Shown here in pieces: positions 16,731 to 31,759 of a DNA stretch of 64,000 nt. The position numbers and the translations under genes are program-made. Source of the stretch: an uncultured Clostridia bacterium (GTDB lineage Bacteria; Bacillota; Clostridia; Oscillospirales; Ruminococcaceae); contig CANDVA010000007.1 in NCBI GenBank assembly GCA_947389015.1, positions 1 to 64,000 of the forward strand, read 5' to 3'. Position 1 is the stretch's first letter, and each line of letters starts with the position of its first letter. The notes under the pieces are model-generated. The model was not told where the DNA came from and did no database searches. It was given only the letters and a program-made list of their open reading frames with translations.

Positions 16731-16921
16731 AATAATATACTGATATGCCTCCTGTCAAGCGGACAGAGTAAAAAAACAAAAGCAAAGGGATGGTGCGACT
16801 ATGTTAAACCTCATATATATTAGGCTTAGTCTACCCTTTCGGGAATAACAACAGCCCGCCGCTCCGCAGTGAAACTCAACGGTGGACTTTGCTGTATTAA
16901 AATACAGAAAGGATGTATCAT

Positions 16922-19465
16922 ATGAATAAGATTATTAAGAAAATTACTTCGTTAGTTGCGGCGCTTACAGTGACGCTCACCTCAACGATTGTGTTCAATA
17001 TGCCAAAAAGTTTGACCGCGGCGGCTGAGGGAACTCATTCGCATAAAGCTTGCGGCGGCTTGGCGCACGGGGGGTGTAATCACAACGATATAGTTTACGA
17101 GGAATTTCCTACGGATAATAAAGAAGTAATGATATCCTCGGATAAAAACTATTATCTTACGAGGGATTTGAGTAATAACGACATAACCCGTATCTATAAT
17201 TTGGAAAACATAAAATTGAATTTGTGCCTTAACGGTCATAAAATAGTCACTGAAAAAGCGGTGTTTCACCCTGTGAGCGGGGCTGTTTTAAATATCTGCG
17301 ATTGCAAAGGCGGCGGCAGTATCGAAAATACGTTGAATTTACAGGGTGTTGTTCAGATAAGCGAGGGCGGACAAGCCAACATATACGGCGGAAGTTTTGT
17401 AGGACGGATGGGCAGCATATGTATGGGCGACAGTAATGATGTTGTCAACATCTACGATGGAAATTTTATTTCTAACGAGCCTGTTTATATGTATGGCGGC
17501 ACTCTTTCGATCTACGGAGGTGAGTTTACCTCAAAAAAGACCTGCGTTACAGCACAGAGGGGCAATATTTCGGTTTATGACGGAAAATTCATATGCACAG
17601 CCGAGACCGACGATTACAAATATATAATAGACGCTTGGTACGGCGTTATGGTCAACATATTTGATGGAAAAATGACCTGTGAAAAAGCAATGGGCGTTCG
17701 ACTTTTTGACAGCGACTGCATTCTCAATATGAGCGGAGGCAGTATCTTCAGCTACGGCTCAGCCGTCCTTTCCAACGGAAACAACACGCCAAAAGTCAAC
17801 ATAAGCGGCGGTTCCCTCTGCTCCGATCACGCGGTGACTATCAGCGGCGGCGCATTGAAAATGACGGGAGGTACAGTTTCCGGTTTTATGGGAATTGGCA
17901 CGGGTGGCGAAATAACGGGCGGTACAATAAAAGATTGCGGTTATTGCGGAATATCCGTGCAGCAAAACTGTAACGTGACGATTGGCGGCAATGCAAAATT
18001 TGAAAATAACATCTGTGATATTTATCTTGTGACCGCCGACGATATTTTTACAGTAAAGGACGATTTTCAAAATATCGCCGCTGTTCGCGTGGTAGATGAT
18101 ATTTCCGAAGATACCCCGAGAAGGATCACGACCAACGGCACGGACGAAAATGCTTTGAGTAAAATCACTTCCTGCGATGATAAATATGCCGTAAAGTATG
18201 ACGACAGCAGCAAATATCTGTACCTTAATTATCATGTTCACGAATATGACGAGAATTTTAAATATGATGAAAACGGGCATTGGCAGTTGTGCGAAAAGTG
18301 CGGCGAAGTCGGTGAAAAAACATCTCACACTTGGGATAACGGCAACGTGACCAAACAGCCTACTGAAAATGATAAGGGCGTAAAGACCTACACCTGTGAG
18401 ATATGCAAAGCCGAAAGAACGGAAGATATAGATATGCTTGAACACGAGCACACTTACTCTGAGGACTGGACAAGCGACGAAAACAATCACTGGCACGCGG
18501 CGACTTGCGGTCACGACGTCAAAAGCGGCAAAGCGCCCCACATTTGGGATAATGGAACTGTAATTAAGCAGCCCACCGAAAACAAAACGGGTGAAAAGCG
18601 CTTTGGGTGTACAGCCTGCGGCACATTTAAAACAGAGATTATTCCCGCAACGGGCGGAAGCGATACAAGCGATCCCGACATATCCGATAAAGGAAATATC
18701 ATCAAGGACGTTCAGTTGAGCGGTAATGTTCCCAAGACAACATTGGCTACACCGCTTGAAGAGCTGATTGCAGCCGTTCTGACCCCCGAAGAACAAGAGA
18801 TGATAAACAACGGTATCGACATTAAAATAATCCTGACCGTTAACGATGCGACGAACGAGGTTTCCACCGAGGATAAAACGGCAGTTCAAAACAAGATCGG
18901 CGAACTGAAAAATTATAAGCTAGGACAGTATCTTGATCTTAATCTGTTGAAGATTATCGGCGACAGCGAGGGCGTAAAGATAACTCAAACCAACAAGCCT
19001 ATTTCCGTAACCTTTGAAATTCCTGACGCTCTGCGCGGAAAGATCGCGTATTCCGTTATTCGAGTTCACAGCGGCACAGCAACAGCTCTTAATGATCTGG
19101 ACAGTGATTCGAATACTGTGACAATTGAAACCGACAAGTTTTCAATCTATGCGTTGGCTTATCAGGAAAAATCCACATCTACAAAACCGGGCGAAGATGA
19201 TTCAAACTCATCCCGTCCTACTACGAGCGACAATTCGGACAACTCATCAAGTGATACCCCCAACTATACCTCAAGCAACACATCTGAAACGTCCGATAAT
19301 TCCTCCGATGAAGACTCGAGCAGCTACGAGAGCAGTCACGTTCCAAGCGAAAGCAGCACACCAAACAGCGGCGACAACCCCGAAACTGGTATAACGGTTT
19401 CGCTTATTCCGCTAGCTGCAATATTGTCGGGAGTGATTGCCGCAGTAAATCGCAAAAAGGAATAA
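16922..19465 (+). CDS. Sortase-type surface protein with beta-helix repeats
   Basis: 847 residues from ATG 16922; AGAAAGGA is well spaced for this start and too close for the in-frame ATG at 16913. Signal peptide: KIIKKITSLVAALTVTLTST. Residues about 130-350 are short repeats of the type VNIYDGNF, LSIYGGEF, ISVYDGKF, VNISGGSL, LKMTGGTV, which form a right-handed parallel beta helix. Two His/Cys-rich repeats (HTWDNGNVTKQPTEN and HIWDNGTVIKQPTEN, each followed by CxxC) follow, as in other Ruminococcal surface proteins. A Ser/Thr-rich stalk precedes NPETG, a hydrophobic segment and NRKKE, a sortase signal. Binding target unknown. Probably controlled by the direct repeat upstream. Confidence 0.8.
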   Translation: MNKIIKKITSLVAALTVTLTSTIVFNMPKSLTAAAEGTHSHKACGGLAHGGCNHNDIVYEEFPTDNKEVMISSDKNYYLTRDLSNNDITRIYNLENIKLNLCLNGHKIVTEKAVFHPVSGAVLNICDCKGGGSIENTLNLQGVVQISEGGQANIYGGSFVGRMGSICMGDSNDVVNIYDGNFISNEPVYMYGGTLSIYGGEFTSKKTCVTAQRGNISVYDGKFICTAETDDYKYIIDAWYGVMVNIFDGKMTCEKAMGVRLFDSDCILNMSGGSIFSYGSAVLSNGNNTPKVNISGGSLCSDHAVTISGGALKMTGGTVSGFMGIGTGGEITGGTIKDCGYCGISVQQNCNVTIGGNAKFENNICDIYLVTADDIFTVKDDFQNIAAVRVVDDISEDTPRRITTNGTDENALSKITSCDDKYAVKYDDSSKYLYLNYHVHEYDENFKYDENGHWQLCEKCGEVGEKTSHTWDNGNVTKQPTENDKGVKTYTCEICKAERTEDIDMLEHEHTYSEDWTSDENNHWHAATCGHDVKSGKAPHIWDNGTVIKQPTENKTGEKRFGCTACGTFKTEIIPATGGSDTSDPDISDKGNIIKDVQLSGNVPKTTLATPLEELIAAVLTPEEQEMINNGIDIKIILTVNDATNEVSTEDKTAVQNKIGELKNYKLGQYLDLNLLKIIGDSEGVKITQTNKPISVTFEIPDALRGKIAYSVIRVHSGTATALNDLDSDSNTVTIETDKFSIYALAYQEKSTSTKPGEDDSNSSRPTTSDNSDNSSSDTPNYTSSNTSETSDNSSDEDSSSYESSHVPSESSTPNSGDNPETGITVSLIPLAAILSGVIAAVNRKKE

Positions 19466-19813: not shown

Positions 19814-19842
19814 TTGACTTTTGGCTTTGTTTAGTGTATAAT
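19814..19842 (+). promoter_or_regulatory. Promoter of the HTH-kinase operon
   Basis: TTGACT at 19814-19819 and TATAAT at 19837-19842, 17-bp spacing. Transcription would begin near 19849, only about 10 nt before a 16-bp hairpin that holds the ribosome binding site in its loop. Confidence 0.8.
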
Positions 19843-19858
19843 AAAATTATATTTTTCA

Positions 19859-19903
19859 ACAGCTTTATTTCACGAAAGGGAGGCTTCCGTGAAATAAAGC
19901 TGT
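19859..19903 (+). promoter_or_regulatory. 5'-terminal mRNA hairpin presenting the ribosome binding site in its loop
   Basis: ACAGCTTTATTTCACG (19859-19874) and CGTGAAATAAAGCTGT (19888-19903) are perfectly complementary over 16 bp. The 13-nt loop AAAGGGAGGCTTC contains the only good Shine-Dalgarno sequence for the next gene. The first GTG after it (19889) opens GTG-AAA-TAA, a two-codon frame that is not the frame of the HTH protein. No terminator T-run follows, so a role in translation or RNA stability is more likely than termination. Confidence 0.7.
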
Positions 19904-20316
19904 CCACAAACGATTTGTTTTTGATGATCGAGAACATTTCCGACCTTGGGAAAACATGGGATAATCTCACCCCGCATATGAAAACGCCGATTTTTAAGGA
20001 TTACCTTTATGAGCTTATGAAACAGCACGGTTTGGACGCGGGTCGGCTTGTAGTGAAATCCTTGCTCAGCCGCTCGTTCGCGTATCAGATATGCTCGGGC
20101 GAACGTCAGCCGAGCAGGGATATCGTTTTAAGGATCGCGATAGCGATGGGGGCGTCCGTAGACGAAACGCAGCAGCTGCTTCGGCTCGCGCAGCGCGGCA
20201 CACTGTATCCGCGCGACCCGCGTGACGCGGTCATAATTTACGCGCTTTCGCGGGGGCTCGATCTGTACGAAGCGGACGAGCTGTTATCACAGATGGAGCA
20301 GCAGACCTTGCTATGA
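19900..20316 (+). CDS. Helix-turn-helix regulator paired with the Ser/Thr kinase
   Basis: About 138 residues. The conserved part begins LSTNDLFLMIENISDLGKTW and continues with FKDYLYELMKQHGLDAGRLV, RSFAYQICSGERQPSRDIVL and VDETQQLLRLAQRGTLYPRD. It is a divergent XRE-like domain (SRSFAYQICSGERQPSRD is the turn and recognition helix) with an acidic helical C-terminus, a type often found beside Hanks kinases in gut Firmicutes. The start is unresolved: the promoter at 19814-19842 excludes the GTG at 19726, the GTG at 19889 is out of frame, and the first in-frame ATG (19924) has no ribosome site; a CTG at 19900 follows the loop ribosome site. Its stop overlaps the kinase start by 4 bp (ATGA), so both are co-translated. 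Confidence 0.68.
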   Translation: MSTNDLFLMIENISDLGKTWDNLTPHMKTPIFKDYLYELMKQHGLDAGRLVVKSLLSRSFAYQICSGERQPSRDIVLRIAIAMGASVDETQQLLRLAQRGTLYPRDPRDAVIIYALSRGLDLYEADELLSQMEQQTLL

Positions 20317-22193
20317 CTGAAAACAAGACAAAAACAACGCTGCCCGACGAGCTCGGCGGCGAATATACCGTTTTGTCCGAGCTTAAATCCGGCAAGAGCG
20401 GAAAAGTTCTGTTGGTTTACGACACGGTATGTCGCCGCAAGGCTGTACTTAAAATCGCATATGACAGTTCCAAGCTGCCCGAAACGGAAGCCGCAGTTAT
20501 GTCCGCGATGGCGGGGGAGGGTATACCCGCCGTGTATAACTGCTGTTTGTCGGAAAACAGCGGCTGGCTGCTGCGAGAGTATATCCCGGGCGAAACGCTC
20601 GACGAGTATGTTAAGAAAAACGGCGCTCTCGGCGCCGAAGAGATAATATCGCTCGGGATAGCGCTCTGCCGCGTTATCGGAAGAATGCATCTGCACGATC
20701 CGCAGATAATACACCGCGATATCAAGCCTCAGAATATCGTGCGCAAAAAGGACGGCTCGCTGTGTCTGATAGACTTCGGAACGTGCAGGGAATATGACGC
20801 GTCGTCAAGCTGTGACACGCAGATTATCGGCACGCCCGTTTCGGCGCCGCCGGAGCAGTTCGGCTACCGCCAGACGGACGCGCGCTCGGACGTTTATTCG
20901 ATAGGCGTGCTGCTGAATTTTCTGTCCACGGGTGAATATTCTCCCGAAAAGCGCGCGGCAAATCCGCGCCTAAAAAAGATAATCGGGAAATGCACGAGCT
21001 TTTCTCCCGACGCCAGATATTCCGACGCGGCGGAGCTTCAAAGGGCTCTCGAGGCGCTGGAGCCGTCGGCAAGGCTTCGCAAACGGATATTGCTGTGCGC
21101 GGCTGCCCTCGCCGTTATCGTGGCAGTGATGATTATCATTCCGAACGTACTGCGCGGTATCTCATCCGCGCCGCCACTCGCCGAGCCGGCGGAAAACGGC
21201 GCGTATAAATTCGCAGATCCAACAATCGAAGCGGAGATATGCCGCCGGCTCGGCAAGGACTTGATAACCATCGAGGACCTTAGCGGGATAACCGAGCTTA
21301 TGCTTATCGGTGAAACGCCCTTTGACGAATGGGAGGAGCTTTCCGCCGTCGGTGAGGGAGTGGCGGTAAACGGCGTTGATATAAACGACAGCGGCGATAT
21401 TTTCACGCTTGAGGATATCGCGGCAATGCCGAACCTGCATACCCTCGTGCTGTGCAACCATGAGATATCCGATCTGTCGCCGCTCGCGGACAGTAAGATC
21501 GAACGTCTTGCGCTGCGCGGCAACAATATTTCGGATATTACCCCGCTTGCGCGGTGCGCGTCGCTCTCGGAGCTGTTTATCGGCAACAATCCCGTTTCGG
21601 TGATAACGCCGCTTCTCGAATGTAAACAGCTGTCCGCTCTCGAAATCGGAAAAACGCGCGTGAATAATTTCGACGTTATCCTTAAGCTGCCAGAGCTTTC
21701 GTCGCTCAATATCACCATGTGCGACTATCTGACGGATTTTTCCCCGCTTGCGGAAATGGACGGGCTTAGAGACCTCAGAATTTTCCCCGCGGACAAGGAT
21801 ACTATGGATATCATCTGCGAACTGACGGGGCTTGTGGAGCTCGTTGTGTGGTGCTCGGACGACGTCGAAGATTTTGAGGGTATCGCGAAGCTGAAAAATT
21901 TACAGCACCTTCTCATAGGTCCGCTGGGCGAAAAGACCGTGCTGTCGTTTGACGGCATAGAAAAGCTGCCGAGGCTTTATTATATGCACGTCGGCGGAGC
22001 GAAGGGCTCGGATATTTCCGCGCTGGCAAAATCGCGGAGCCTTTCATGTATAATATTTTACGACTGCGATATAGAGGATTATTCCGCGCTCGCTGAGCTT
22101 GATACGTTATATCGCGTCGAGTGCTCCCCCGCGGAGTACGACAAAATTTCCTCGGCGCTTGCCGGCAAAAGCACGATTATAAACATCATATAA
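20313..22193 (+). CDS. Membrane Hanks-type Ser/Thr protein kinase with LRR-like extracellular domain
   Basis: 626 residues. The kinase domain (about 15-255) has the ATP lysine in AVLKIAY (K47), the catalytic loop HRDIKPQN (H134, R135, D136), DFG (D154-G156) and SAPPEQF replacing APE. One membrane helix follows at about 258-282 (RILLCAAALAVIVAVMIIIP). The outside part (about 310-626) is a series of LRR-like units: LHTLVLCNHEISDLSPLADS, IERLALRGNNISDITPLARC and further copies to the end, the SPL/TPL pattern of internalin-type repeats. So an external ligand, likely protein or cell wall, is read and transmitted by phosphorylation. PASTA domains of PrkC are absent. It is coupled to the HTH gene and followed by a terminator. 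The substrate is unknown; the HTH protein or the dynamins downstream are candidates. Confidence 0.85.
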   Translation: MTENKTKTTLPDELGGEYTVLSELKSGKSGKVLLVYDTVCRRKAVLKIAYDSSKLPETEAAVMSAMAGEGIPAVYNCCLSENSGWLLREYIPGETLDEYVKKNGALGAEEIISLGIALCRVIGRMHLHDPQIIHRDIKPQNIVRKKDGSLCLIDFGTCREYDASSSCDTQIIGTPVSAPPEQFGYRQTDARSDVYSIGVLLNFLSTGEYSPEKRAANPRLKKIIGKCTSFSPDARYSDAAELQRALEALEPSARLRKRILLCAAALAVIVAVMIIIPNVLRGISSAPPLAEPAENGAYKFADPTIEAEICRRLGKDLITIEDLSGITELMLIGETPFDEWEELSAVGEGVAVNGVDINDSGDIFTLEDIAAMPNLHTLVLCNHEISDLSPLADSKIERLALRGNNISDITPLARCASLSELFIGNNPVSVITPLLECKQLSALEIGKTRVNNFDVILKLPELSSLNITMCDYLTDFSPLAEMDGLRDLRIFPADKDTMDIICELTGLVELVVWCSDDVEDFEGIAKLKNLQHLLIGPLGEKTVLSFDGIEKLPRLYYMHVGGAKGSDISALAKSRSLSCIIFYDCDIEDYSALAELDTLYRVECSPAEYDKISSALAGKSTIINII

Positions 22194-22200
22194 TTGTTTT

Positions 22201-22226
22201 CCCGTCTGAATGACGGGGATTTTTTT
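22201..22226 (+). terminator. Terminator of the HTH-kinase unit
   Basis: CCCGTC at 22201-22206, loop TGAAT, GACGGG at 22212-22217, then GA and seven T. It ends the first transcription unit of the dynamin locus. Confidence 0.75.
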
Positions 22227-22237
22227 GTCCCGAAATT

Positions 22238-22281
22238 GTACGCAGACTGCGTACCAAAAGCAAATTGTTATATGGTATAAT
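22238..22281 (+). promoter_or_regulatory. Dyad operator and promoter of the lipoprotein-dynamin operon
   Basis: GTACGCAGACTGCGTAC at 22238-22254 is a 7-3-7 dyad. TATAAT at 22276-22281, preceded by TG at its upstream side (extended -10), is the likely -10 box; the matching -35 position (22253-22258) is poor and touches the dyad. This fits a regulator, possibly the HTH protein upstream, acting at this promoter. Confidence 0.55.
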
Positions 22282-22334
22282 GAATGCAGAAAGTTTATTA
22301 TACGCTTATGTAACGACAGTTTAGGAGGTATGGT

Positions 22335-23306
22335 ATGAGCGTTTCAAAAAAATTAAAGGCTGCCGCAATGGCGGCAGTGGTGTTTGCGGTCGGTTTGACG
22401 GCAGGCTGCAAAAACGGAGTGAGCGAGGACGAACTGAGGAGCATTATTGCCGAGATAAATGCGAGCAGCGATAACAACACCGGCAACGACAGCAATTACG
22501 GTAATAAAGACTATGGTTTCAGCAATAACGATTATGACTTCGGTAACAACGATTTCGGCGGTGCTGACACCGACAATCATTATCAGGAAAACGCGGCTGC
22601 CGGTAATCACCGATACGAGGAAAGCTCATACGGCGAGCAGACCGACGGGATTCAGCCCGGCACGGCTATAGTTGAGTGGAACGGCGTTCAGTACAATGCC
22701 GCGGCAAGCTACGAAAACAACGACGACTGCTTCGGTATAAGAGCTAATTTTGACGGAAAGCACATCGGCATGGTCATATACAAGAACAAGGTAAGCGAGG
22801 GCGACAAGCTTGAGGACGCAAACGGCGACTTTGACTATGACAATAAGGTCGGACTTGTAAGCCTTGTGGATTTTCCGACGACAAACGGCACGGTCTATAA
22901 CGGCGGAACCAACGTGTCCACGATGTACGATCTGCAATATTTTGACGGAGTGACGCTCGAGGTCAAAAAGCTTGACCCGAACGGCGTCACAGAGTTCGTA
23001 TGTGTGGCGTGGGTCGATATGGGTGATTACGGAAACAATACGTTTAAAGTCACCGCGGCAGTCGACGTAAATACCTCCCCATCCTACAGCGGCGGTGGCG
23101 GCACCGTAGGCGGTACGGGCGGCGGCATTGAATACGGAAGCGACAAATGCGGCTACTGCAACGGCGCGGGTACCTGTCAGGTCTGCGGCGGTATGCGCAG
23201 AATATATGTTCCGAGCTATGTGGGCGAGCCCGGAACATATGTGAACTGCGCAAGCTGCAATGGAAATGGAAAATGCGAGTGGTGCGGAGGCACGGGGAAA
23301 CGATAA
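22335..23306 (+). CDS. Lipoprotein with C-terminal DnaJ-like CxxCxG zinc motifs
   Basis: 323 residues, start after AGGAGGT. Lipobox LTAGC with acylated Cys25 follows a hydrophobic signal. Residues 45-110 are an Asn/Gly/Asp/Tyr-rich low-complexity linker. Residues about 110-245 form an unrecognised beta-rich domain (FGIRANFDGKHIGMVIYKN). After a Gly-rich stretch come four cysteine motifs, CGYCNGAG, CQVCGG, CASCNGNG and CEWCGGTG, the repeat type of the DnaJ zinc-finger domain. A DnaJ-like zinc finger on a secreted lipoprotein is unusual. First gene of the second unit; no function known. It could be a partner or ligand of the kinase ectodomain, which is inference from position only. Confidence 0.75.
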   Translation: MSVSKKLKAAAMAAVVFAVGLTAGCKNGVSEDELRSIIAEINASSDNNTGNDSNYGNKDYGFSNNDYDFGNNDFGGADTDNHYQENAAAGNHRYEESSYGEQTDGIQPGTAIVEWNGVQYNAAASYENNDDCFGIRANFDGKHIGMVIYKNKVSEGDKLEDANGDFDYDNKVGLVSLVDFPTTNGTVYNGGTNVSTMYDLQYFDGVTLEVKKLDPNGVTEFVCVAWVDMGDYGNNTFKVTAAVDVNTSPSYSGGGGTVGGTGGGIEYGSDKCGYCNGAGTCQVCGGMRRIYVPSYVGEPGTYVNCASCNGNGKCEWCGGTGKR

Positions 23307-23701
23307 TGGATATTGACTTTACGCAAAGAGTGGTGTTCGGAAGCTTGCACCCGAACGAGGACTCCACGATAATCTTTGTCAACCGCGCGAAGTGCATACG
23401 GCGCACCATCGTTGACCGGTCGGGAGTTATCGTCGGCTTCCCCGGGGTCGAGGGCTTGGAGGATATATCTCCGCAGATATGCTTCCGCGCGAGCATTGAA
23501 ACCGCGCCGAGCGGAAGGTTTTATATGCTTTGGGAGGTAAATCCCGACGGGCGCTTTTACGGCGACGAAAGCGGCTTCGGCATGGAAAGCGGCGAGGAAC
23601 TGAGATTGTACGCCTTTATCGACGGCGAGGGACGCTTCGAGGATAAATTCAGAATATACAATCGCGGAAGCGATCGCTATATTGATCCAAACAAAATGTA
23701 A
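23306..23701 (+). CDS. Unknown 131-residue protein of the dynamin operon
   Basis: 131 residues from ATG 23306, which overlaps the stop of the lipoprotein gene (TAATG). No signal peptide, cysteine cluster or membrane helix. Content is beta-type (FTQRVVFGSLHPNEDSTIIF, FYMLWEVNPDGRFYGDESGF). It does not match a family I recognise. Tight spacing and shared direction put it in the same operon, 20 bp before the C39-like gene. Confidence 0.65.
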   Translation: MDIDFTQRVVFGSLHPNEDSTIIFVNRAKCIRRTIVDRSGVIVGFPGVEGLEDISPQICFRASIETAPSGRFYMLWEVNPDGRFYGDESGFGMESGEELRLYAFIDGEGRFEDKFRIYNRGSDRYIDPNKM

Positions 23702-23721
23702 AACGCCAAAGGAGGTAAATT

Positions 23722-24684
23722 ATGGACGGAAACGAATTGGGAACGGTATTTGAGCCGCAGGCGATAGATATTGACGGCGACGGCTCGATAGACGGGATAA
23801 TAGTCGCCGAGGACGCAAACGGCGACGGTATTGCCGACACTCTGACCGTTATGGCTGACACGGACGACAACGGACTTATCGACAGCGTTCAGACGCTGAT
23901 CGATACCACCGGCGATGGTATTCCCGATACCATAGTCGGCGCGGAGGCGATAGACACCACGGGCGACGGCATAAAGGATTCCACGGTCGTATATCAGGTC
24001 GACGCCGCGAGCGGCGCCATAGAGCATATGGAAATACACGACACGGATGAAAGCGGCTTCCACGATATCTTCTCCCACGAGCAGTATGCAGCCGACGTAT
24101 ATTCGGAGCTTGAGCCCGCGTATGAGCAGTTCGACCCCGACAGCACAGATATGGACAACGTTATCGGCGACCCCGCGAACGACGAGCACGTCTGGGAATA
24201 TCAGGGCGACAGCGGACCGTGCGCCATCTACGCGCAGGCAATGGCGTATCAGAACGTCACGGGCGAGGAGGTGGATATCGGGGAGCTCATCGAAACGGCG
24301 ACGGAGGAGGGCTGGTATAACGGCGGCACCGCGACGGACGATATGGACAAGGTGCTGAACTATCTCGGTCTTGACGCGGACGTTGAATACCGCGGAGACA
24401 TGGAGGATATACGCGAGTGCCTTGAGAACGGCGGCAGAGTGGTCGCCGCGGTAGACGGCAACGAGATATGGCTCGGCGACAACGACACCTGCTATTCCCC
24501 GAACGACCCCAACCACGCGGTGGAGGTCATCGGGATAGACTACTCGGGTGACGAGCCTATGGTCATAATCAACGACTCGGGAACGCCCGACGGACACGCG
24601 ATAATGGTCCCCAAGGATCAGTTCGTGGACGCTTGGCAGGACAGCGATTTCGCGTACGTATGCGTTTATCCGCAATCGGTATAA
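23722..24684 (+). CDS. C39-like cysteine peptidase with N-terminal DxDGDG calcium-type repeats
   Basis: 320 residues, start after AAAGGAGGT. Residues 13-100 hold five acidic repeats of the kind DIDGDGSIDG, DANGDGIADT, DTDDNGLIDS, DTTGDGIPDT, DTTGDGIKDS, the calcium-loop pattern of thrombospondin-3 and dockerin modules. Residues about 155-320 are a papain-fold C39-type domain: YQGDSGPCAIYAQ with Cys167, PNHAVEVIGIDY with His265 and IINDSGT with Asp285, i.e. the complete triad. There is no visible export signal and no ABC transporter next door, so this is not a classic bacteriocin-processing peptidase. Calcium loops normally work outside the cell, so either non-classical export or a cytosolic calcium-triggered protease is possible. 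Its position before the dynamins suggests an effector or activator. Confidence 0.72.
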   Translation: MDGNELGTVFEPQAIDIDGDGSIDGIIVAEDANGDGIADTLTVMADTDDNGLIDSVQTLIDTTGDGIPDTIVGAEAIDTTGDGIKDSTVVYQVDAASGAIEHMEIHDTDESGFHDIFSHEQYAADVYSELEPAYEQFDPDSTDMDNVIGDPANDEHVWEYQGDSGPCAIYAQAMAYQNVTGEEVDIGELIETATEEGWYNGGTATDDMDKVLNYLGLDADVEYRGDMEDIRECLENGGRVVAAVDGNEIWLGDNDTCYSPNDPNHAVEVIGIDYSGDEPMVIINDSGTPDGHAIMVPKDQFVDAWQDSDFAYVCVYPQSV

Positions 24685-24704
24685 CGAGGTGAAAGGGGTA
24701 TTAA

Positions 24705-25229
24705 ATGAATATTTCGATAAAGGAAGTTTTACATAAAATAAACGTCTGCGAGGCGGTGAGGGCGGTCGTTCCCATGGGCATGGGCGCGGGACTGCCCATG
24801 CTTGAGATAGCGGGCGAGCGGCTGCTGGTGTCCGTGTTCTATTTCAGGAGCGCGGCTAAGCCCGACGATAAAACGGAGCTTTCCGCGCCGCAGTATATTA
24901 TTTCGGTGGGATATCCCAACTGCAAGCTCGCGGCGTTCAGGACGCTGCCGCTTGAAACGAAGTACGCCGAAACGGATTTTTCCGCGCCCGCGGGAACGTT
25001 TCGCCACGACGCGGTGAAGCATCTGAACCACAAGCAGTACGCCGACAAGAAAGACGAGCTGTACGCGCTTCTCGACAAGCAGATAGCCTATATCGGAGGC
25101 GAGGACGGAGTTTTCACGGCGGAGGACAGGCTCAAGGGGTTGTACGCTATGCTGGCGGAGCCGTCGCTGCTGCCGTTTTACCGCGATATGTCGCCGAGAT
25201 TTTTTGAGGAATATTTTACGGAGGAGTGA
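24705..25229 (+). CDS. Unknown 174-residue protein of the dynamin operon
   Basis: 174 residues, ribosome site GAAAGGGG. Soluble alpha/beta content, e.g. MGAGLPMLEIAGERLLVSVF and APQYIISVGYPNCKLAAF, ending with LPFYRDMSPRFFEEYFTEE. No motif I recognise. It ends 4 bp before the GTG of the first dynamin-like gene, with that gene's GGAGGAG inside its last codons, so translation is coupled. Possibly a dedicated partner of the dynamins. Confidence 0.65.
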   Translation: MNISIKEVLHKINVCEAVRAVVPMGMGAGLPMLEIAGERLLVSVFYFRSAAKPDDKTELSAPQYIISVGYPNCKLAAFRTLPLETKYAETDFSAPAGTFRHDAVKHLNHKQYADKKDELYALLDKQIAYIGGEDGVFTAEDRLKGLYAMLAEPSLLPFYRDMSPRFFEEYFTEE

Positions 25230-25233
25230 GCGC

Positions 25234-26982
25234 GTGTTTGTTAAAAGAAGCGTTTTTTTCGAGGATAAGCCCACCGCGCCGACAGAGCGATCCGGAAACA
25301 AAAGTGTATGCGCCGACGCAGCCGTGATAAATGATACGGCGCTCTCGGAGCAGCTCCGTTGCTTAAGGGAGATGTGCGTTGAGCTCAACAGAGCAGAGCT
25401 CGTCACGGCTCTTGACAACGCGGAGCGGCGCATAAGCAGCGGCTTTACGGCGGCGGTGTTCGGTCATGGCGCGATCGGGAAGAACGCCCGTATCAACGGT
25501 ATCGCAGGGAAGGAGATATTCCCCGAGAGCCTTTCCGACGAGGAGTACAGGCGGCTGTTCGGCGGTATCCCGACGGTAATAAGAGACGGCGAGGACGGGA
25601 TAACTCTGCGGCACGGCAGAATACCGCAGAAAAAAGCGTCGTTTCCGCTCACCGGGGAGGGCTGGAAAAGCGCCGCCGTATTTGCCGCAAAGAACGCTTC
25701 TCGCGCCGTCGAGGTAAGCGTTTCGGGAACATTTCTTTCCGAGAACGGGATCGGGCTTGTCCGCACCGACCTCGACGGAGATATAAGCGCCTGCGACTGT
25801 GCTGCGGAGCTTACTTCGGCGATCCAGCTTCTCGGCGAGAGAGAAATGTTGGCGCTTCGGAATATAAACGGCAGAGTTCCGTTTATCGCGGCGGCGGTAA
25901 TGCATATGGACAGCCTGAACGATACGGAGCGTGGTCAGATACTTTCCTATGCGGAGAAAAAGCTCGGAGATATAAACGGAGAAATAGCGCTGCTGACGGA
26001 GGGCGATATTGATATGCGCGTGAGAGAATATATCATAAGCCGCAGTCAGAGCGCCGAGCTCGCAGAACGGAAAACGCAGTGTATCCGGCGCGACCTTTCC
26101 GAGATACGCGGCGATATGGCGACGATATATTCCGCGCTGTTATCGGAGCTGACGGAGCGCGGCAGACAGACCGCCGCCAAAGCGGAACGGCGCAAAAGCG
26201 ACGCTGCCGAGGCGACAAAAAAAACGTGGGATATTCTGGAAACGGAAATGATGAAAAAGAGCAGCGAGCGCTTTGAATGGGTGTACAACAGGGTAACCGA
26301 GGCTCGCGACGAGCTGCTCGAGCGCTTCCGCTTTGAGGCGGAGCACACGAACGACCCCAAGGACTGGCTGGAAAACGTCTACCCTTACAGAATGAAGCAG
26401 GAGATGAAAACGCTGACGAGGTCGCTGGAGATAAATCTTAAAAACTCTTATATAAGCGACACCGACTGGCTGAACAGGCAGGTAAAGGCGAAATTCGGCG
26501 CGGAGATAAGCAGCGGTTATTCCACTATCGCCGATATGGGCGCGGTTCCGTCCGAGAGCATGGGCACATCCATGCGCGATATCAAAAAGGTGCGCATCGG
26601 AGCAAGAGCGGTCGCGGGCGCGGCTGCAATTGTAGGTTATTTGGCGGCGCTCGGACCACTCGCGCCCGCCATCAGCATAAGCGGGGGGCTTGTTGCGGAG
26701 CTCTTTCTAGGGAAAAAGATATCCGAACAGCGGAAAGCGCTCATAACAAGGCTTAATTCCGTTATTCCCGCGGAATTGAACCGGCGGCTCGGCGAGGTCG
26801 AAAATAATCTCAGGGAGCTGTACAAAAACGCGGTGTCGTCCGCGCGGGCGGCATATGAGGATACCCTTGAGAAACAGGCCGCCGAGATCGACGGGCAGAC
26901 CGCCGCGAAAAGCGCGAACGATATCGGCGCGGTATACAACAATCGGATAGAACAGCTAAAAAAGCTGAAAACGGAGGAATAA
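25234..26982 (+). CDS. Dynamin-like protein with degenerate nucleotide-binding motifs
   Basis: 582 residues from GTG 25234, 7 nt after GGAGGAG; the ATG at 25204 lies inside the previous gene. The layout parallels the two dynamins downstream: an N-terminal helix pair, a G-domain-like segment from residue 70, a long coiled stalk (about 250-430) and a hydrophobic paddle-like segment (VRIGARAVAGAAAIVGYLAA to AISISGGLVAELFLG). The P-loop position reads FGHGAIGKNARINGI: the Ser/Thr after GK is Asn84. The DxPG switch-II motif is not found where expected (LVRTDLDGD). So it probably does not hydrolyse GTP and may be a regulatory subunit in a mixed dynamin assembly, as in paired bacterial dynamins. Confidence 0.65.
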   Translation: MFVKRSVFFEDKPTAPTERSGNKSVCADAAVINDTALSEQLRCLREMCVELNRAELVTALDNAERRISSGFTAAVFGHGAIGKNARINGIAGKEIFPESLSDEEYRRLFGGIPTVIRDGEDGITLRHGRIPQKKASFPLTGEGWKSAAVFAAKNASRAVEVSVSGTFLSENGIGLVRTDLDGDISACDCAAELTSAIQLLGEREMLALRNINGRVPFIAAAVMHMDSLNDTERGQILSYAEKKLGDINGEIALLTEGDIDMRVREYIISRSQSAELAERKTQCIRRDLSEIRGDMATIYSALLSELTERGRQTAAKAERRKSDAAEATKKTWDILETEMMKKSSERFEWVYNRVTEARDELLERFRFEAEHTNDPKDWLENVYPYRMKQEMKTLTRSLEINLKNSYISDTDWLNRQVKAKFGAEISSGYSTIADMGAVPSESMGTSMRDIKKVRIGARAVAGAAAIVGYLAALGPLAPAISISGGLVAELFLGKKISEQRKALITRLNSVIPAELNRRLGEVENNLRELYKNAVSSARAAYEDTLEKQAAEIDGQTAAKSANDIGAVYNNRIEQLKKLKTEE

Positions 26983-26984
26983 TA

Positions 26985-29009
26985 ATGGATATAAATGTTC
27001 AGCTTCAGGAATTTAAGGCAATGCGGCAGAAGCTCACGGAACTGACGGCAGACGCGGCGTCGGCGATAGGCTCTCTCGACGTGGAAAACTATGCGCGGTC
27101 ACTTGAAAAGCTGCATGAAAAGCTGACCTCGGACACGTTCAAAATAATGGTAATGGGCAGCTTCAAAAACGGGAAAAGCACGTTTATAAATTCGCTGCTG
27201 GGCACGGAGGTGCTTCCCGCCTATGTCACGCCGTGCACCGCCATCATAAACGAGGTCAAGTACAGCGAAAAACCTAAGGCGGTGCTGTATTTTATGGACC
27301 CGCTGCCCGAGGTGTACACCGAGGTTTCGGAAAAGGCGCTCGCGCATATGCACAAGCACGGCATGAAAAATATCCCCCCGCTGGAGATACCCATCGACGA
27401 GATAGAGGATTATCTCACTATCCCGCTCGGAATGGGCGCGGAGGAAGCGGGCAAGCAAAGCGCCTATGAGAAAATGGAGCTTTTCTGGCCGCTGGAGCTG
27501 CTGAAAAACAACGTTGAGATAATCGATTCCCCGGGGCTTAACGAGAACCCCGTCAGGACGCGTATAACAATGGGTTATCTCGCGAACGCCGACGCGATAA
27601 TATTCGTGTTCAATTCGCTGGCGTTCGGCTCGTACGAGGAAATGGAGTACATAGATACAACGCTTGCGCAGAGCGGCTTCAATAAAAAGAGCATTTTCGG
27701 CGTGGTCAACAGATACGATATGCTGCCCAAGGAGAGTGATAAGCTGCGGGTAAAAAATCTCGCGGAGCAGATGCTCGAAAACCGCACGGAGCATATTTTT
27801 TACACCTCGGCGGCGAACGCGCTGGCGGGCAAGCTCAACGGCGACGGCGAGCTGCTTAAAAGCTCGGCTATGCCGGAGGTGGAGGAGGCGCTCGCGGAAT
27901 ACCTTACAAAAGAGCGCGGCAGGATAAAGCTAGCGACGCCCTCGCAGGAGCTGCTGCGAATTATCCGCGACGATATCACGGGCGGAGTTATCCCGCTCCG
28001 CAGAAGCGTGCTGTCAATGGACCTGAACAGCTTTAAGGAGCGCTTTGAAGCCGAAAAGCCTAATATCGAAAAGCTGAGACAGCAGCGCGAGCTTATACTC
28101 AGCAAGGCGGAGGCGTATATCGCGAATATGCAGCCCGACGTGCGGCGGTGCGTTATAAATTATGTCAACGATTTGCCCGCGCGTATAAACGCGTGGACGG
28201 AGGAATTTACGCCGCAGACAAAATTCTCGCTCGTACACCCGAAGCAATCCATGGAGAAGATAATCGAGGAAGTGACCGAGCATTTAAGCCAGAAGCTGGA
28301 CGTGGAGATAAGAAGCTGGACGGCGGAAACGCTTACCGCTCTTATCACCGATAAGATAGAGGAACTGAAAAGCTCTATGGAGGGGTGCGTCGGCGATTTT
28401 TATGTGCAGCTTGACAATATTAACTTTAATATCACCAACAACGAAAAGGTCAAGGCGGTAAACGATAGTGTTCCCGTGTGGCAGCGGGTTGTGGCGGCAG
28501 GCGGAGGATGGTTTATCGCGGGTCCGCAAGGAGTGTTTTCGGGCGCGGTGAATGGACTTAGCAAGAATTTTGTCAAAGAGATGGCAATACAGATGGGATT
28601 GTTTTTTGTTGCGGGATTTTTCGGCTTGGTAAATCCCATAGTAATCGTTGGAATTGTTGCGGCTTCCATATTCAACTCAACTATTCAGCTCGGCAAGCAG
28701 TCCGTAAATACGGCTAAGAAAAAGGTATGCGAATCCTTCTGTAATTCCATAAACGAGCAGTCGCAGAAGCTGACCGAGGATATAGTCGGGCAGGCGATGG
28801 CGAAAATACGCGAGTGCAGGGACTTTGTAGGAAACTCGCTCAACACGGAGATAGAGCAGGTGAACGGCGAGCTGAACAAAATGGTCGAGGAAAAGGAAAA
28901 GGGCGAGGACAACATCAGAATGCTGCTCGGCGAGCTCGACGACAACGAGGCGAAGCTGCGCGATATCGAAAAGCGGCTCACGGGCTTTGTGTTCGAGCTG
29001 CTGCAATAA
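26985..29009 (+). CDS. Dynamin-family GTPase (intact)
   Basis: 674 residues, starting 2 bp after the previous stop. G1: MGSFKNGKSTFINSLLG (GSFKNGKS at 58-65). Switch I Thr in VTPCTAIINEV. G3: DSPGLNE (D181-G184). G4: VNRYD (241-245). A helical stalk with LRQQRELILSKAEAYIANMQ follows, then two hydrophobic segments near residues 505-565 (WFIAGPQGVFSG and MGLFFVAGFFGLVNPIVIVG) as membrane paddle, and a C-terminal coiled coil (EKGEDNIRMLLGELDDNEAK). This is the bacterial dynamin-like architecture of DynA/LeoA-type proteins that bind, fuse or remodel the cytoplasmic membrane. Middle of three consecutive dynamins. Role in phage defence or stress-induced membrane repair is inference. Confidence 0.85.
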   Translation: MDINVQLQEFKAMRQKLTELTADAASAIGSLDVENYARSLEKLHEKLTSDTFKIMVMGSFKNGKSTFINSLLGTEVLPAYVTPCTAIINEVKYSEKPKAVLYFMDPLPEVYTEVSEKALAHMHKHGMKNIPPLEIPIDEIEDYLTIPLGMGAEEAGKQSAYEKMELFWPLELLKNNVEIIDSPGLNENPVRTRITMGYLANADAIIFVFNSLAFGSYEEMEYIDTTLAQSGFNKKSIFGVVNRYDMLPKESDKLRVKNLAEQMLENRTEHIFYTSAANALAGKLNGDGELLKSSAMPEVEEALAEYLTKERGRIKLATPSQELLRIIRDDITGGVIPLRRSVLSMDLNSFKERFEAEKPNIEKLRQQRELILSKAEAYIANMQPDVRRCVINYVNDLPARINAWTEEFTPQTKFSLVHPKQSMEKIIEEVTEHLSQKLDVEIRSWTAETLTALITDKIEELKSSMEGCVGDFYVQLDNINFNITNNEKVKAVNDSVPVWQRVVAAGGGWFIAGPQGVFSGAVNGLSKNFVKEMAIQMGLFFVAGFFGLVNPIVIVGIVAASIFNSTIQLGKQSVNTAKKKVCESFCNSINEQSQKLTEDIVGQAMAKIRECRDFVGNSLNTEIEQVNGELNKMVEEKEKGEDNIRMLLGELDDNEAKLRDIEKRLTGFVFELLQ

Positions 29010-29020
29010 GGAGAGCGCCT

Positions 29021-30937
29021 ATGGAAACGGAATTCGTTCTCGAGCAGCTGCGCGGGCTTGCCGCGGTCGAACCCAAGCTGGAATTTATCCGCGCCGCCGC
29101 GGAAAAATACGAGCTTCCCGAGGAAAGCGCGGCGCGGATACTCGCGGAATGTGACCTTATCGAAACGAGAATAAATGACAAGCGGCTGAAAATGGCTGTT
29201 ATCGGCGAATTTTCCTCCGGAAAAAGCAGCTTTATAAACTCGCTGCTGCGCGAGGAGCTGCTCGAAACGGACGTTTTACAGGGCACTACCGTGCTGTCCG
29301 TTATGATATATTACAGCGACGCGCGGGAAATAACCGTTATAGAAAACGGCATACGCGAGCGCACCGTGTACGAAAGCGCGGAAAGGTTCCGCGAGCGTGT
29401 GCGCGGGCTCAACCGCGGCGTTGACGATAATTCTCCGATAAGCCGCGCGGAGATAGGGCTGCCGTCGGAGTTTCTCAAACGCGGGATATGCATTATCGAC
29501 ACGCCCGGGACGCAGTCCGTCAACGCGTGGCACGATGAAACGACGCGGCGCATTATTCACGAGCAGGCGGACGGCTGCATAGTGCTTACAAATGCCATTG
29601 CGCCGCTGCCGGCGTCGCTTTGCCGGTTTGTCGAAGACAATCTTTCCGATATGCTGCCGGGCTGCATATTTGTCGCGACAAAATTAGACCTTGTAAAAAA
29701 TACGGAGCGTCGGAGGCTGATGGATTTTATAGCGCAAAAAACCGCGTCGGATTTTAAACTCGACGCTCCGCTCGCGCTGCCGTATTCGTCGCTTGATGTG
29801 ATGAACGGCGGCGGCGACGCGGAACTTTCTCGGGCGACGGAGGAAAAGATACTCGAGACGCTGTCGGCAAACAAATTCGCGATACAGCAGCGCGGCGTGT
29901 TGTCGCTGACCCGACAGACGATCGACGCGCTGCTGGAAAATATGCGGAGCCTTTCGGAGGACGCGGAGCGGCGGCGCTGCGCTCTCGAGCAGGCGGCGAC
30001 GGTCGGGCTCGACGAATTTGTGAGCAAAGAGATAGCCGCAAAGCGCGTCGAGTACGACGAGCGTTTCGCCGACGTTTCGCGGAGCTACTGCTCAAAGCTC
30101 GACGATATCTGCGAGCGCATGGAGCGGGAGCTGGACGGCGAGCTGGATTCCCTGAACACGGGCGACGGTGTTGTGAATTTCTTTAAAAATCTTCCCGAAC
30201 GGCTTAGCGAGGTCGGAAACAAGGCGCTTGCGGAGCTCGGCGCGGTTGACGGGTCGCCCCCCGCGGCGTTCGCGGACGCGGAAAATATAAGCGCGGAGCT
30301 GACGGCGGCATTCGAGAGCGCTCTCACCGCGCAGTACCCTACCCTCACGCTGCTTGCGGAAAAAAAGAAGCCGGAAAGCAAATTCAAGGTCGCCGAAAGC
30401 TGGAACACCGACCTTACCGCAAACGAAACGCTGAAAAAGAACGTTCTTGCTGACGGTGAAAAGGACACCAAAAATTTTATGGTAGGTTGGGGGGGCTGTG
30501 CCGCTTCGGGAGCCATTTTAGGCAGCATTATTCCCGGCATAGGCACGGTGGCGGGGCTGATAGGCGGGATAGTCGTCGGAGCATTCGCGGCGGCAAAGGG
30601 CTCCAACAGCCCCAAACGGCTTAAAAAGCTCAGGGAGCGGACGGCTCAGGATTATGCGGCGGTAAAATCCCGTTTTTTCGAGGAGCTCAAAAGCGACCTG
30701 ACAAACGCGATGAGAAAGCACTCCAACGCCTGCCGCTCGGCAATTGACGATACCGCGCGCGAATATCTTGACTTCTACAAGGAAGCGGTGCGCGAGCTTA
30801 CGGAGCGGAACAACGCGGAGCGTCTTGCCGCCGAACGGCGCATTAAGGAAATAGACGATGACGTTCGCAGACTGCGGACGTTCAGCGAGGAAACCGAAAA
30901 CATATTAAGACATCTCGGAAAGGAGAACAGGCTATGA
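29021..30937 (+). CDS. Second intact dynamin-family GTPase
   Basis: 638 residues from ATG 29021 (ribosome site AAGGAG); a frame extending back to 28814 runs inside the preceding gene and is rejected. G1: IGEFSSGKSSFINSLL (GEFSSGKS at 62-69). Switch I in LQGTTVLSVMIYY. G3: DTPGTQS (D160). G4: ATKLD (T220-D223). Stalk helices at 300-420, then a glycine-rich membrane paddle (GCAASGAILGSIIPGIGTVA to GGIVVGAFAAAKG) around 500-535, and a C-terminal coiled coil. It differs clearly from the previous dynamin, so this is a heterotypic set, not a recent duplication. The stop overlaps the next start by 4 bp. Confidence 0.85.
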   Translation: METEFVLEQLRGLAAVEPKLEFIRAAAEKYELPEESAARILAECDLIETRINDKRLKMAVIGEFSSGKSSFINSLLREELLETDVLQGTTVLSVMIYYSDAREITVIENGIRERTVYESAERFRERVRGLNRGVDDNSPISRAEIGLPSEFLKRGICIIDTPGTQSVNAWHDETTRRIIHEQADGCIVLTNAIAPLPASLCRFVEDNLSDMLPGCIFVATKLDLVKNTERRRLMDFIAQKTASDFKLDAPLALPYSSLDVMNGGGDAELSRATEEKILETLSANKFAIQQRGVLSLTRQTIDALLENMRSLSEDAERRRCALEQAATVGLDEFVSKEIAAKRVEYDERFADVSRSYCSKLDDICERMERELDGELDSLNTGDGVVNFFKNLPERLSEVGNKALAELGAVDGSPPAAFADAENISAELTAAFESALTAQYPTLTLLAEKKKPESKFKVAESWNTDLTANETLKKNVLADGEKDTKNFMVGWGGCAASGAILGSIIPGIGTVAGLIGGIVVGAFAAAKGSNSPKRLKKLRERTAQDYAAVKSRFFEELKSDLTNAMRKHSNACRSAIDDTAREYLDFYKEAVRELTERNNAERLAAERRIKEIDDDVRRLRTFSEETENILRHLGKENRL

Positions 30938-31452
30938 ACGTATACGGTGATTTTAAGGCGGTCTGGAAAAGATTTGAGGAGCTTTCTTACGGTAAGCTTA
31001 TTGAAAAAAGCAGACAGGCGTCTTTGACCGCCGCCGCGGCAGGAACGGCGGTATCGACCGCGGCGACAGCGTGGACGGATAAATACGATCCATGCGGAAA
31101 GTGGCTCGGCGATTTGCGAAAAAGGGACGCGAAAAAGGCGGAACAGATAACAAAAATTGTCGAGAGCATAGATTTTATTGAAGCGCCGCCCGCAAAGCGG
31201 ATATCCGATATCAGCGTTATCGGAGTGCCGGTGCTTGGCGCGTTGGTAGGCGCGGGCGTAAGTTCGCGGGTATTCCACGCGGGAATTTTCGCCGGCGCGG
31301 CGTCCGCCATTCTGCCCGCGGCGGCGCTTTATCCGATAATGAAAAAAACACAGAGCGAAATGTGCAAGTCGGAGGAAAAGCGGCTCGTCGGACAATATAT
31401 GGAGCAGTTGGACAGCGTCCGCGGTCTTATTCTTGAGGTACTCGACAATTAA
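30934..31452 (+). CDS. Small membrane protein of the dynamin operon
   Basis: 172 residues, start overlapping the dynamin stop (ATGA). An amphipathic Ala-rich stretch lies at residues 28-46 (ASLTAAAAGTAVSTAATAW), then a pair of hydrophobic helices at about 93-137 (ISVIGVPVLGALVGAGVSS and IFAGAASAILPAAALYPIM), ending in a charged helix. No enzyme motif. Probable membrane anchor or adaptor for the dynamins. Family not recognised. Confidence 0.65.
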   Translation: MNVYGDFKAVWKRFEELSYGKLIEKSRQASLTAAAAGTAVSTAATAWTDKYDPCGKWLGDLRKRDAKKAEQITKIVESIDFIEAPPAKRISDISVIGVPVLGALVGAGVSSRVFHAGIFAGAASAILPAAALYPIMKKTQSEMCKSEEKRLVGQYMEQLDSVRGLILEVLDN

Positions 31453-31462
31453 GGAGGCAGAA

Positions 31463-31759
31463 ATGGAAATAAAGGTAAAGGTCAACGATATTGATTACGA
31501 TATGATAATAAAAAACGCGCTTCCGCTTTTGAGGGAAAAAAGCGACAACAAGATCGTTAAGATTATCGCGGGCATAATTGATATGCCCGGAGAGCTTCCG
31601 CTGAAAATGATCTCGACCATTCCGCAGGATACCAAAAACGAGCTTGTATCGTATATCGTTAATCTTAAAAAGGACGCGATAGCCGAGATAATTACGGAAA
31701 GCCTTGGTAAGAAAGGCTTTCCGATAGAGGTGGGAGATATTGAGGTCGTCAATTTATAG
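31463..31759 (+). CDS. Unknown 98-residue last gene of the dynamin operon
   Basis: 98 residues from ATG 31463 after AAGGAGGC. Charged, helical, soluble: MEIKVKVNDIDYDMIIKNAL and IVNLKKDAIAEIITESLGKK. No motif recognised. It closes the cluster; no clear terminator follows and the DNA turns into mobile-element debris within 40 bp. Confidence 0.65.
   Translation: MEIKVKVNDIDYDMIIKNALPLLREKSDNKIVKIIAGIIDMPGELPLKMISTIPQDTKNELVSYIVNLKKDAIAEIITESLGKKGFPIEVGDIEVVNL

What the first reader, a model, noticed from the sequence alone, without database searches (positions are those of the whole stretch)
19814..31759. HTH + LRR receptor kinase + lipoprotein + C39-like peptidase + three dynamins: a candidate undescribed membrane-remodelling or defence system
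Twelve consecutive plus-strand genes with tight spacing. Unit 1 is an HTH regulator and a membrane Ser/Thr kinase with an LRR-like ectodomain, co-translated (ATGA). Unit 2 is a zinc-motif lipoprotein, a C39-like peptidase with calcium-type repeats, two intact dynamin GTPases, one degenerate dynamin, a membrane protein and small unknowns. Known: bacterial dynamins remodel membranes, and LeoA/Eleos-type dynamins have been linked to vesicle release and phage defence. Inference: an outside signal read by the kinase or lipoprotein controls dynamin assembly on the inner membrane, with the protease as trigger or effector. ICE and IS debris lies directly downstream, as around defence islands. I know of no named system with this combination.
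Basis: partly seen in the sequence, partly recalled or inferred. Interest (0 to 1): 0.88.

Follow-up and report, generated by a model that had tools for sequence, protein, structure and literature searches.

The report
Peptidase-linked triple-dynamin gene cluster
Bacteria of at least two phyla, many from animal guts, share a rare but conserved six-gene cluster that joins three membrane-shaping dynamin proteins to a calcium-repeat peptidase, possibly an undescribed machine that responds to membrane trouble.

The parts
19814..19842 (+). sigma-70-like promoter TTGACT-17-TATAAT of unit 1
   Evidence: consensus scan, 11 of 12; matches in the whole region are near chance number (13 found, 10.2 expected)
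19859..19903 (+). perfect 16-bp inverted repeat with 13-nt loop just downstream of the promoter; possible operator or leader hairpin
   Evidence: RNA fold z -6.8; no Rfam match
19924..20316 (+). HTH regulator (accessory module; start uncertain)
   Evidence: HTH_31 1.4e-5, 25.8 bits, below its cut-off of 27; homologue 49% in L076
20313..22193 (+). Ser/Thr kinase with LRR part (accessory module)
   Evidence: Pkinase 5.1e-29, LRR_4 3.6e-14; 36% full-length homologue in L076
22199..22226 (+). terminator-like hairpin plus T run between units
   Evidence: number of such hits in the region is near chance
22238..22254 (.). perfect palindrome GTACGCAG-A-CTGCGTAC upstream of unit 2 (TATAAT at 22276-22281), possible operator
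   Evidence: 13 palindromes of this grade in the window, so may be chance
22335..23306 (+). lipoprotein-like protein with CxxCxG zinc-type motifs; window only
   Evidence: sequence by eye; no family over cut-off; no homologue in relatives
23306..23701 (+). g4, accessory; homologous domain is fused to a dynamin in L083
   Evidence: 35% identity, 1.2e-21
23722..24684 (+). core 1: N-terminal DxDGDGxxD-type repeats (5 loops) plus C39-like papain-fold peptidase domain, C167/H265/D285, no signal-type hydrophobic segment
24705..25229 (+). core 2: g6, conserved protein of unassigned fold
25234..26982 (+). core 3: DynX, dynamin-like protein; GTPase motifs lost here, G1 and G3 intact in the other 15 of 16 aligned members
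26985..29009 (+). core 4: DynA, intact dynamin, closest solved relative by sequence Nostoc BDLP
29021..30937 (+). core 5: DynB, intact dynamin
30934..31452 (+). core 6: g10, small protein with two hydrophobic segments here (at least one in 8 of 13 homologues by a simple hydropathy rule)
31463..31759 (+). g11, accessory; weak homologue after the core in L064
   Evidence: 23% identity, 1.7e-6 (comparison with two sequences only)

Best explanation
A shared six-gene membrane-response machine. Shown by sequence: a peptidase-fold protein with a tandem calcium-type repeat array and no recognisable export signal, three dynamins most of which have a hydrophobic membrane-insertion-like segment, a small often hydrophobic protein (g10) and g6 are found together in conserved order. 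Inferred: at resting cytosolic calcium the acidic repeat array is loose and the peptidase idle; when the envelope is breached (phage, pore-forming or membrane-active agents) calcium enters, the repeats fold, and the C39-like domain cuts a partner (a dynamin, g6 or g10). This releases DynX-DynA-DynB to assemble at the membrane, perhaps at g10, and to seal, pinch off or rupture the damaged patch. In the window DynX has become a pseudo-GTPase partner, and an HTH-kinase pair has been added as an extra input. The peptidase-dynamin logic resembles mitochondrial OMA1-OPA1 (recalled), built from another peptidase family.
Against: No experiment. Calcium binding and peptidase activity are motif and fold readings; the loop count has no shuffled control, and in L067, L069 and L073 the loops are few and far apart. 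The substrate is unknown. In third-class operons the M48-like protein has lost HExxH in 9 of 10 loci checked, so a non-catalytic role is possible there. L066, L061 and L072 keep dynamins without c39/g6, so the peptidase is not always needed. L058, L062, L065 and L071 lack g10 on contigs that go on, and L062 lacks dynB too. Other multi-dynamin arrays show no recognisable peptidase in the 8 partner proteins scanned. Co-divergence can also follow from host ancestry.
Confidence: 0.38

Rival explanations
1. Anti-phage system of the LeoABC/Eleos type: the dynamins act only after phage infection, delaying lysis or killing the cell, and the C39-like protein is the trigger or effector.
For: DynA scores 70.9 bits with PADLOC LeoBC and 67.4 with LeoA; B. 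subtilis DynA delays lysis after phage infection (passage of PMC9950537); patchy, rare spread (1 of 398 phylum genomes, the window's own; 2 of 297 family genomes including it at orthologue level); GmrSD and phage genes upstream in the window.
Against: Among 104 flanking proteins of 16 relatives no PADLOC family hits more than 2; no orthologue-level match among 50,697 phage and 72,556 plasmid records. Neither excludes it.
Confidence: 0.27
2. Vesicle or inner-membrane remodelling machine for ordinary physiology; the peptidase matures a dynamin constitutively and calcium only stabilises it.
For: leoA and leoB knockouts have about half the cargo in vesicle fractions (passages of PMC4159319); many flanking genes of relatives are housekeeping families.
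Against: Rarity, spread over phyla and fragmented copies (L060, L061) suit an accessory stress system better than housekeeping.
Confidence: 0.2
3. The eleven genes are one unit: the LRR kinase or lipoprotein senses an outside signal and controls the dynamins.
For: HTH+kinase beside the core in L076 (49% and 36% identity) and beside another dynamin class in L081 and L082.
Against: 1 of 19 orthologous loci; the HTH-kinase module is common without dynamins; terminator-like hairpin between the units; lipoprotein in 0 of 19.
Confidence: 0.12
4. Chance neighbours.
For: Only that the accessory genes vary.
Against: Conserved order in 9 of 19 loci, all six genes in 10, and co-divergence.
Confidence: 0.01

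Closest known systems
LeoABC / Eleos (E. coli ETEC; PADLOC LeoA, LeoBC)
   Same: Adjacent dynamin genes; DynA matches LeoBC 3e-20 and LeoA 3e-19, DynB LeoA 1.6e-10.
   Different: Three full-length dynamins, an apparently intracellular C39-like repeat peptidase, g6 and g10; NCBIfam LeoA score 22.5 against a cut-off of 325.
Bacterial dynamin pairs (Nostoc BDLP, Campylobacter Cj-DLP1/2, Streptomyces DynA/B, B. subtilis DynA)
   Same: DynA best solved relative by sequence is the bacterial dynamin-like protein 2j68 (5.8e-32; Nostoc BDLP, recalled), then 5owv (8.7e-12; Cj-DLP, recalled); most bacterial dynamins are paired in operons (PMC6104087 passages).
   Different: Triple array with dedicated peptidase; the passages read describe none such.
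OMA1-OPA1 of mitochondria (stress peptidase cutting a dynamin)
   Same: Peptidase linked to a dynamin (OPA1 cleavage: titles and abstract starts listed).
   Different: OMA1 is an M48 metallopeptidase (recalled); here a papain-fold peptidase domain with calcium-type repeats. M48 itself appears in the second- and third-class bacterial operons.
C39-like peptidases (PF13529; 3erv)
   Different: N-terminal Ca-type repeat array, no signal-type N-terminus, dynamin operon.

Membership tests
Dynamin superfamily (DynA, DynB) | Dynamin_N domain over gathering score and G1/G3/G4 motifs | tested here: met
   85.0 and 75.8 bits against 27; motifs
Dynamin superfamily (DynX of the window) | GTPase motifs | tested here: not met
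   GHGAIGKNA, no DxPG, no TKxD; homologous to intact DynX (518 bits to a family model that includes it; 21% to L039)
Dynamin superfamily | GTP hydrolysis and membrane assembly | not testable with these tools
   needs protein
C39-like peptidase | papain-like fold with Cys-His-Asp | tested here: met
   predicted model and alignment
C39-like peptidase | Pfam Peptidase_C39_2 gathering score (24 bits) | tested here: not met
   window no match; L063 22.5, L039 22.1 bits, L065 none
C39-like peptidase | proteolysis, calcium dependence | not testable with these tools
   needs protein
Eleos / LeoABC | LeoA-type protein over curated cut-off | tested here: not met
   NF041922 22.5 and 21.5 of 325; PADLOC matches without a cut-off, best 70.9 bits
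Eleos / LeoABC | phage protection or vesicle release | not testable with these tools
   needs experiment
Defence-island system | defence or mobile genes repeatedly in the flanks | tested here: inconclusive
   104 flanking proteins (of 139 listed), 16 loci: mad3 in 2, the other PADLOC families shown 1 each; Pfam at most 4 (LytTR); 25 of 31 and 25 of 144 families shown, ordered by members. Different single defence genes could still add up; the window itself has GmrSD upstream
OMA1-OPA1-like pair | M48 peptidase linked to the dynamin | tested here: not met
   own genome has no match to the M48 alignment A9 at 1e-20; C39-like instead

The most novel reading that the evidence does not exclude
Bacteria possess a general class of peptidase-gated dynamin machines, in at least three architectures (C39-calcium repeat with three dynamins and g10; M48 with a P-loop-less dynamin-like protein, two dynamins and g10; M48-like between two dynamins). 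The window's type is a calcium-breach sensor: a bacterial counterpart of calcium-triggered membrane repair and of OMA1-OPA1 control.
Probability: 0.25. Interest if true: 0.9.

Novelty: new variant of a known kind. Interest (0 to 1): 0.72.

Why it matters
How bacterial dynamins are regulated is largely unknown (recalled). A conserved operon that brings its own peptidase, calcium-type repeats and two unassigned subunits makes that directly testable, in an isolate (Bacteroides oleiciplenus YIT 12058, L067) as well as by expression. If the peptidase controls the dynamins, protease-gated dynamins would exist outside mitochondria, and some gut bacteria would have a molecular response to membrane breach.

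Tried and rejected

Weak points: the species-wide scan used only two short patterns, so loci without them were missed. Most relatives are metagenome bins, so the taxonomy of single contigs may be bin error (for example L058, a Prevotellaceae bin grouping with Bacillota; only 3 of 15 inner branches of that tree are well supported). L070 is a near-copy of L069, L081 of L082, and L059 is the contig of L039. Profiles used contain sequences that they then re-find. My first gene picker missed c39/g6 in L071 and L074 and g6 in L076; searches corrected this. hhalign support that the second-class 560-aa protein is a degenerate dynamin is moderate (probability 88%, 3e-6, thin alignment).
Full report
OBSERVATION. 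Open reading frames at 19.9-31.76 kb give eleven plus-strand genes. Pfam identifies a kinase with LRRs and two dynamins over cut-off and an HTH domain just below it; the lipoprotein-like gene, g4, the C39-like gene, g6, DynX and g10 have no family over cut-off (g11 was scanned only with PADLOC and NCBIfam, without a match over cut-off). A terminator-like hairpin at 22199-22226 divides the run into an HTH-kinase unit and a nine-gene unit. Unit 1 starts with a good promoter match followed by a perfect 16-bp inverted repeat (19859-19903) that folds far better than shuffles (z -6.8).

RELATIVES. In 297 genomes of the window's family the DynA query gave one full-length close relative besides the window, G135 (39%, E 6e-150), plus many distant dynamins. 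Samples of 394 genomes of the order (E 1e-45) and 398 of the phylum (E 1e-100) gave only the window itself; they did not show G135, so they are thin samples. The scan of one genome per species (84,980 genomes) with a two-sequence DynA alignment returned 27 loci. Nineteen match at E 3e-86 or better, the other 8 at 3e-30 or weaker; against a DynA profile built from most of the 19 these score above 700 bits and the 8 score 115-227. By record titles the 19 come from Clostridia, Bacteroidales (including the isolate genome B. oleiciplenus YIT 12058) and one Riflebacteria bin; all six genes are seen only in the first two.

CORE. Profile searches of all frames show c39, g6, dynX, dynA, dynB and g10 all present in 10 of 19: L059, L063, L064, L067, L068, L069, L070, L073, L074, L076. 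In L067 g10 precedes dynB; in L068 dynA is short (588 aa); L070 nearly equals L069. L058, L065 and L071 lack g10. L062 has c39-g6-dynX-dynA and then other genes. L080 has the same four and then the contig ends. L060 begins inside a fragmented dynX and has dynA-dynB-g10. L061 has a fragmented dynX, dynA, dynB, g10 and no c39/g6. L066 has dynX, dynA, dynB, g10 without c39/g6. L072 has only dynA and dynB, its contig ending 0.6 kb later. Distances between members correlate for the 15 pairs of the six families (r 0.56-0.89, 0-11 of 2000 permutations; without the window r 0.54-0.82 and at most 24 of 2000). Such correlation can also follow from host ancestry, so the conserved order is the stronger point.

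ACCESSORY GENES. HTH and kinase: beside the core in L076 (1 of 19), with a LytTR gene in between; beside second-class dynamins in L081 and L082, two similar contigs. Of 148 same-family genomes 25, the window's included, carry the HTH. In 11 neighbourhoods read, 9 have a kinase-profile match directly beside the HTH (L113-L121), L111 has kinases several kilobases away and L112 none; no dynamin profile match was reported in them (L120 is only 4.5 kb). So this is a common module that may have been recruited to several uses. g4: a homologous domain is fused to a second-class dynamin (L083, 35%). g11: weak homologue after the core in L064. The lipoprotein was seen only in the window.

A WIDER THEME. 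In the second class (8 loci) 6 show dynamin, g10-like protein and a second dynamin-like gene; L081 and L082 end inside the first dynamin. Five of 8 also carry an M48 peptidase with HExxH and ExxxAD intact (L077, L078, L081, L082, L083). The 560-aa protein before the dynamin lacks a P-loop in the 6 of 6 examined and is probably a degenerate dynamin. In the third class, common in the window's family, an M48-like match lies within 200 bp of the dynamin match in 45 of 46 genomes; in the exception (G213) the dynamin sits at a contig end (the two alignments contain a few of these loci). HExxH is lost in 9 of 10 of those checked, which points to non-catalytic derivatives there. Other multi-dynamin arrays (Lysinibacillus plasmids L054, L055; L049, L050) show no recognisable peptidase in the 8 partner proteins scanned.

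CONTEXT. The window carries phage structural genes and a GmrSD-type restriction gene upstream and a DDE transposase downstream. L039/L059 has an integrase-like gene (by eye) just upstream of c39. But in 104 flanking proteins from 16 relatives (of 139 listed) no PADLOC family hits more than two (mad3) at 1e-10 and no Pfam family more than four (LytTR) at 1e-5. The DynA tree places the window on a long branch and needs two changes for Bacteroidota because of the single bin contig L058; it is poorly resolved, and transfer between phyla is likely but not proven.

MECHANISM. Shown: co-occurrence in order, predicted peptidase fold with conserved catalytic residues, repeat motifs, absence of a signal-like segment, hydrophobic segments in most dynamins. 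Inferred: calcium binding, activation by calcium entry, cleavage of a partner, dynamin assembly, purpose. I favour membrane-breach response (0.38), then dedicated phage defence (0.27) and ordinary remodelling (0.2).

LITERATURE. Eight searches, of which I saw the listings (titles and starts of abstracts; 8 to 20 of up to 1,255 hits, all hits in three of them), gave no paper on a bacterial dynamin operon with a C39 or M48 peptidase. Passages read: PMC4159319, PMC6104087, PMC9950537; a term search in PMC7159879 found no dynamin. The library holds open-licence papers only, so absence there is not proof.

Noticed in passing
window 19859-19903: Perfect 16-bp inverted repeat with a purine-rich loop right after the unit 1 promoter; RNA hairpin z -6.8; may be the HTH operator or a leader switch.
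   Followed up: partly
L077:7236-14304, L083:651-8591, L081, L082, L078: Second dynamin class: M48 peptidase with intact active-site motif, P-loop-less dynamin-like protein, dynamin, g10-like protein, dynamin; HTH-LRR kinase divergent in L081/L082.
   Followed up: partly
L040-L048, L057; 45 of 46 same-family genomes: Dynamin - M48-like - dynamin operon, widespread in the family; zinc-site motif HExxH lost in 9 of 10 checked, so an apparent pseudo-peptidase linked to dynamins.
   Followed up: partly
L055:5718-15975 and L054:4972-11920 (Lysinibacillus capsici plasmids pFN9A, pFN9B): Two other triple-dynamin operons on plasmids with unassigned partner proteins.
   Followed up: partly
L073:9000-10886: DynB of the Porphyromonadaceae locus has lost its P-loop, mirroring the loss in DynX of the window.
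   Followed up: no
window 12899-15271: GmrSD-type restriction gene between phage structural genes and the dynamin locus.
   Followed up: no
window 16913-19465: 850-aa secreted-looking protein ending in a sortase-like NPETG, hydrophobic stretch and basic tail (by eye); no Pfam match at 0.001.
   Followed up: no
L075:3422-6385: Protein kinase joined to a STAND/NACHT-like ATPase part beside a second-class dynamin operon.
   Followed up: no
G000:C4:58430-60371 (L051): The window's own genome has a second pair of dynamin-like genes elsewhere, only distantly related.
   Followed up: no
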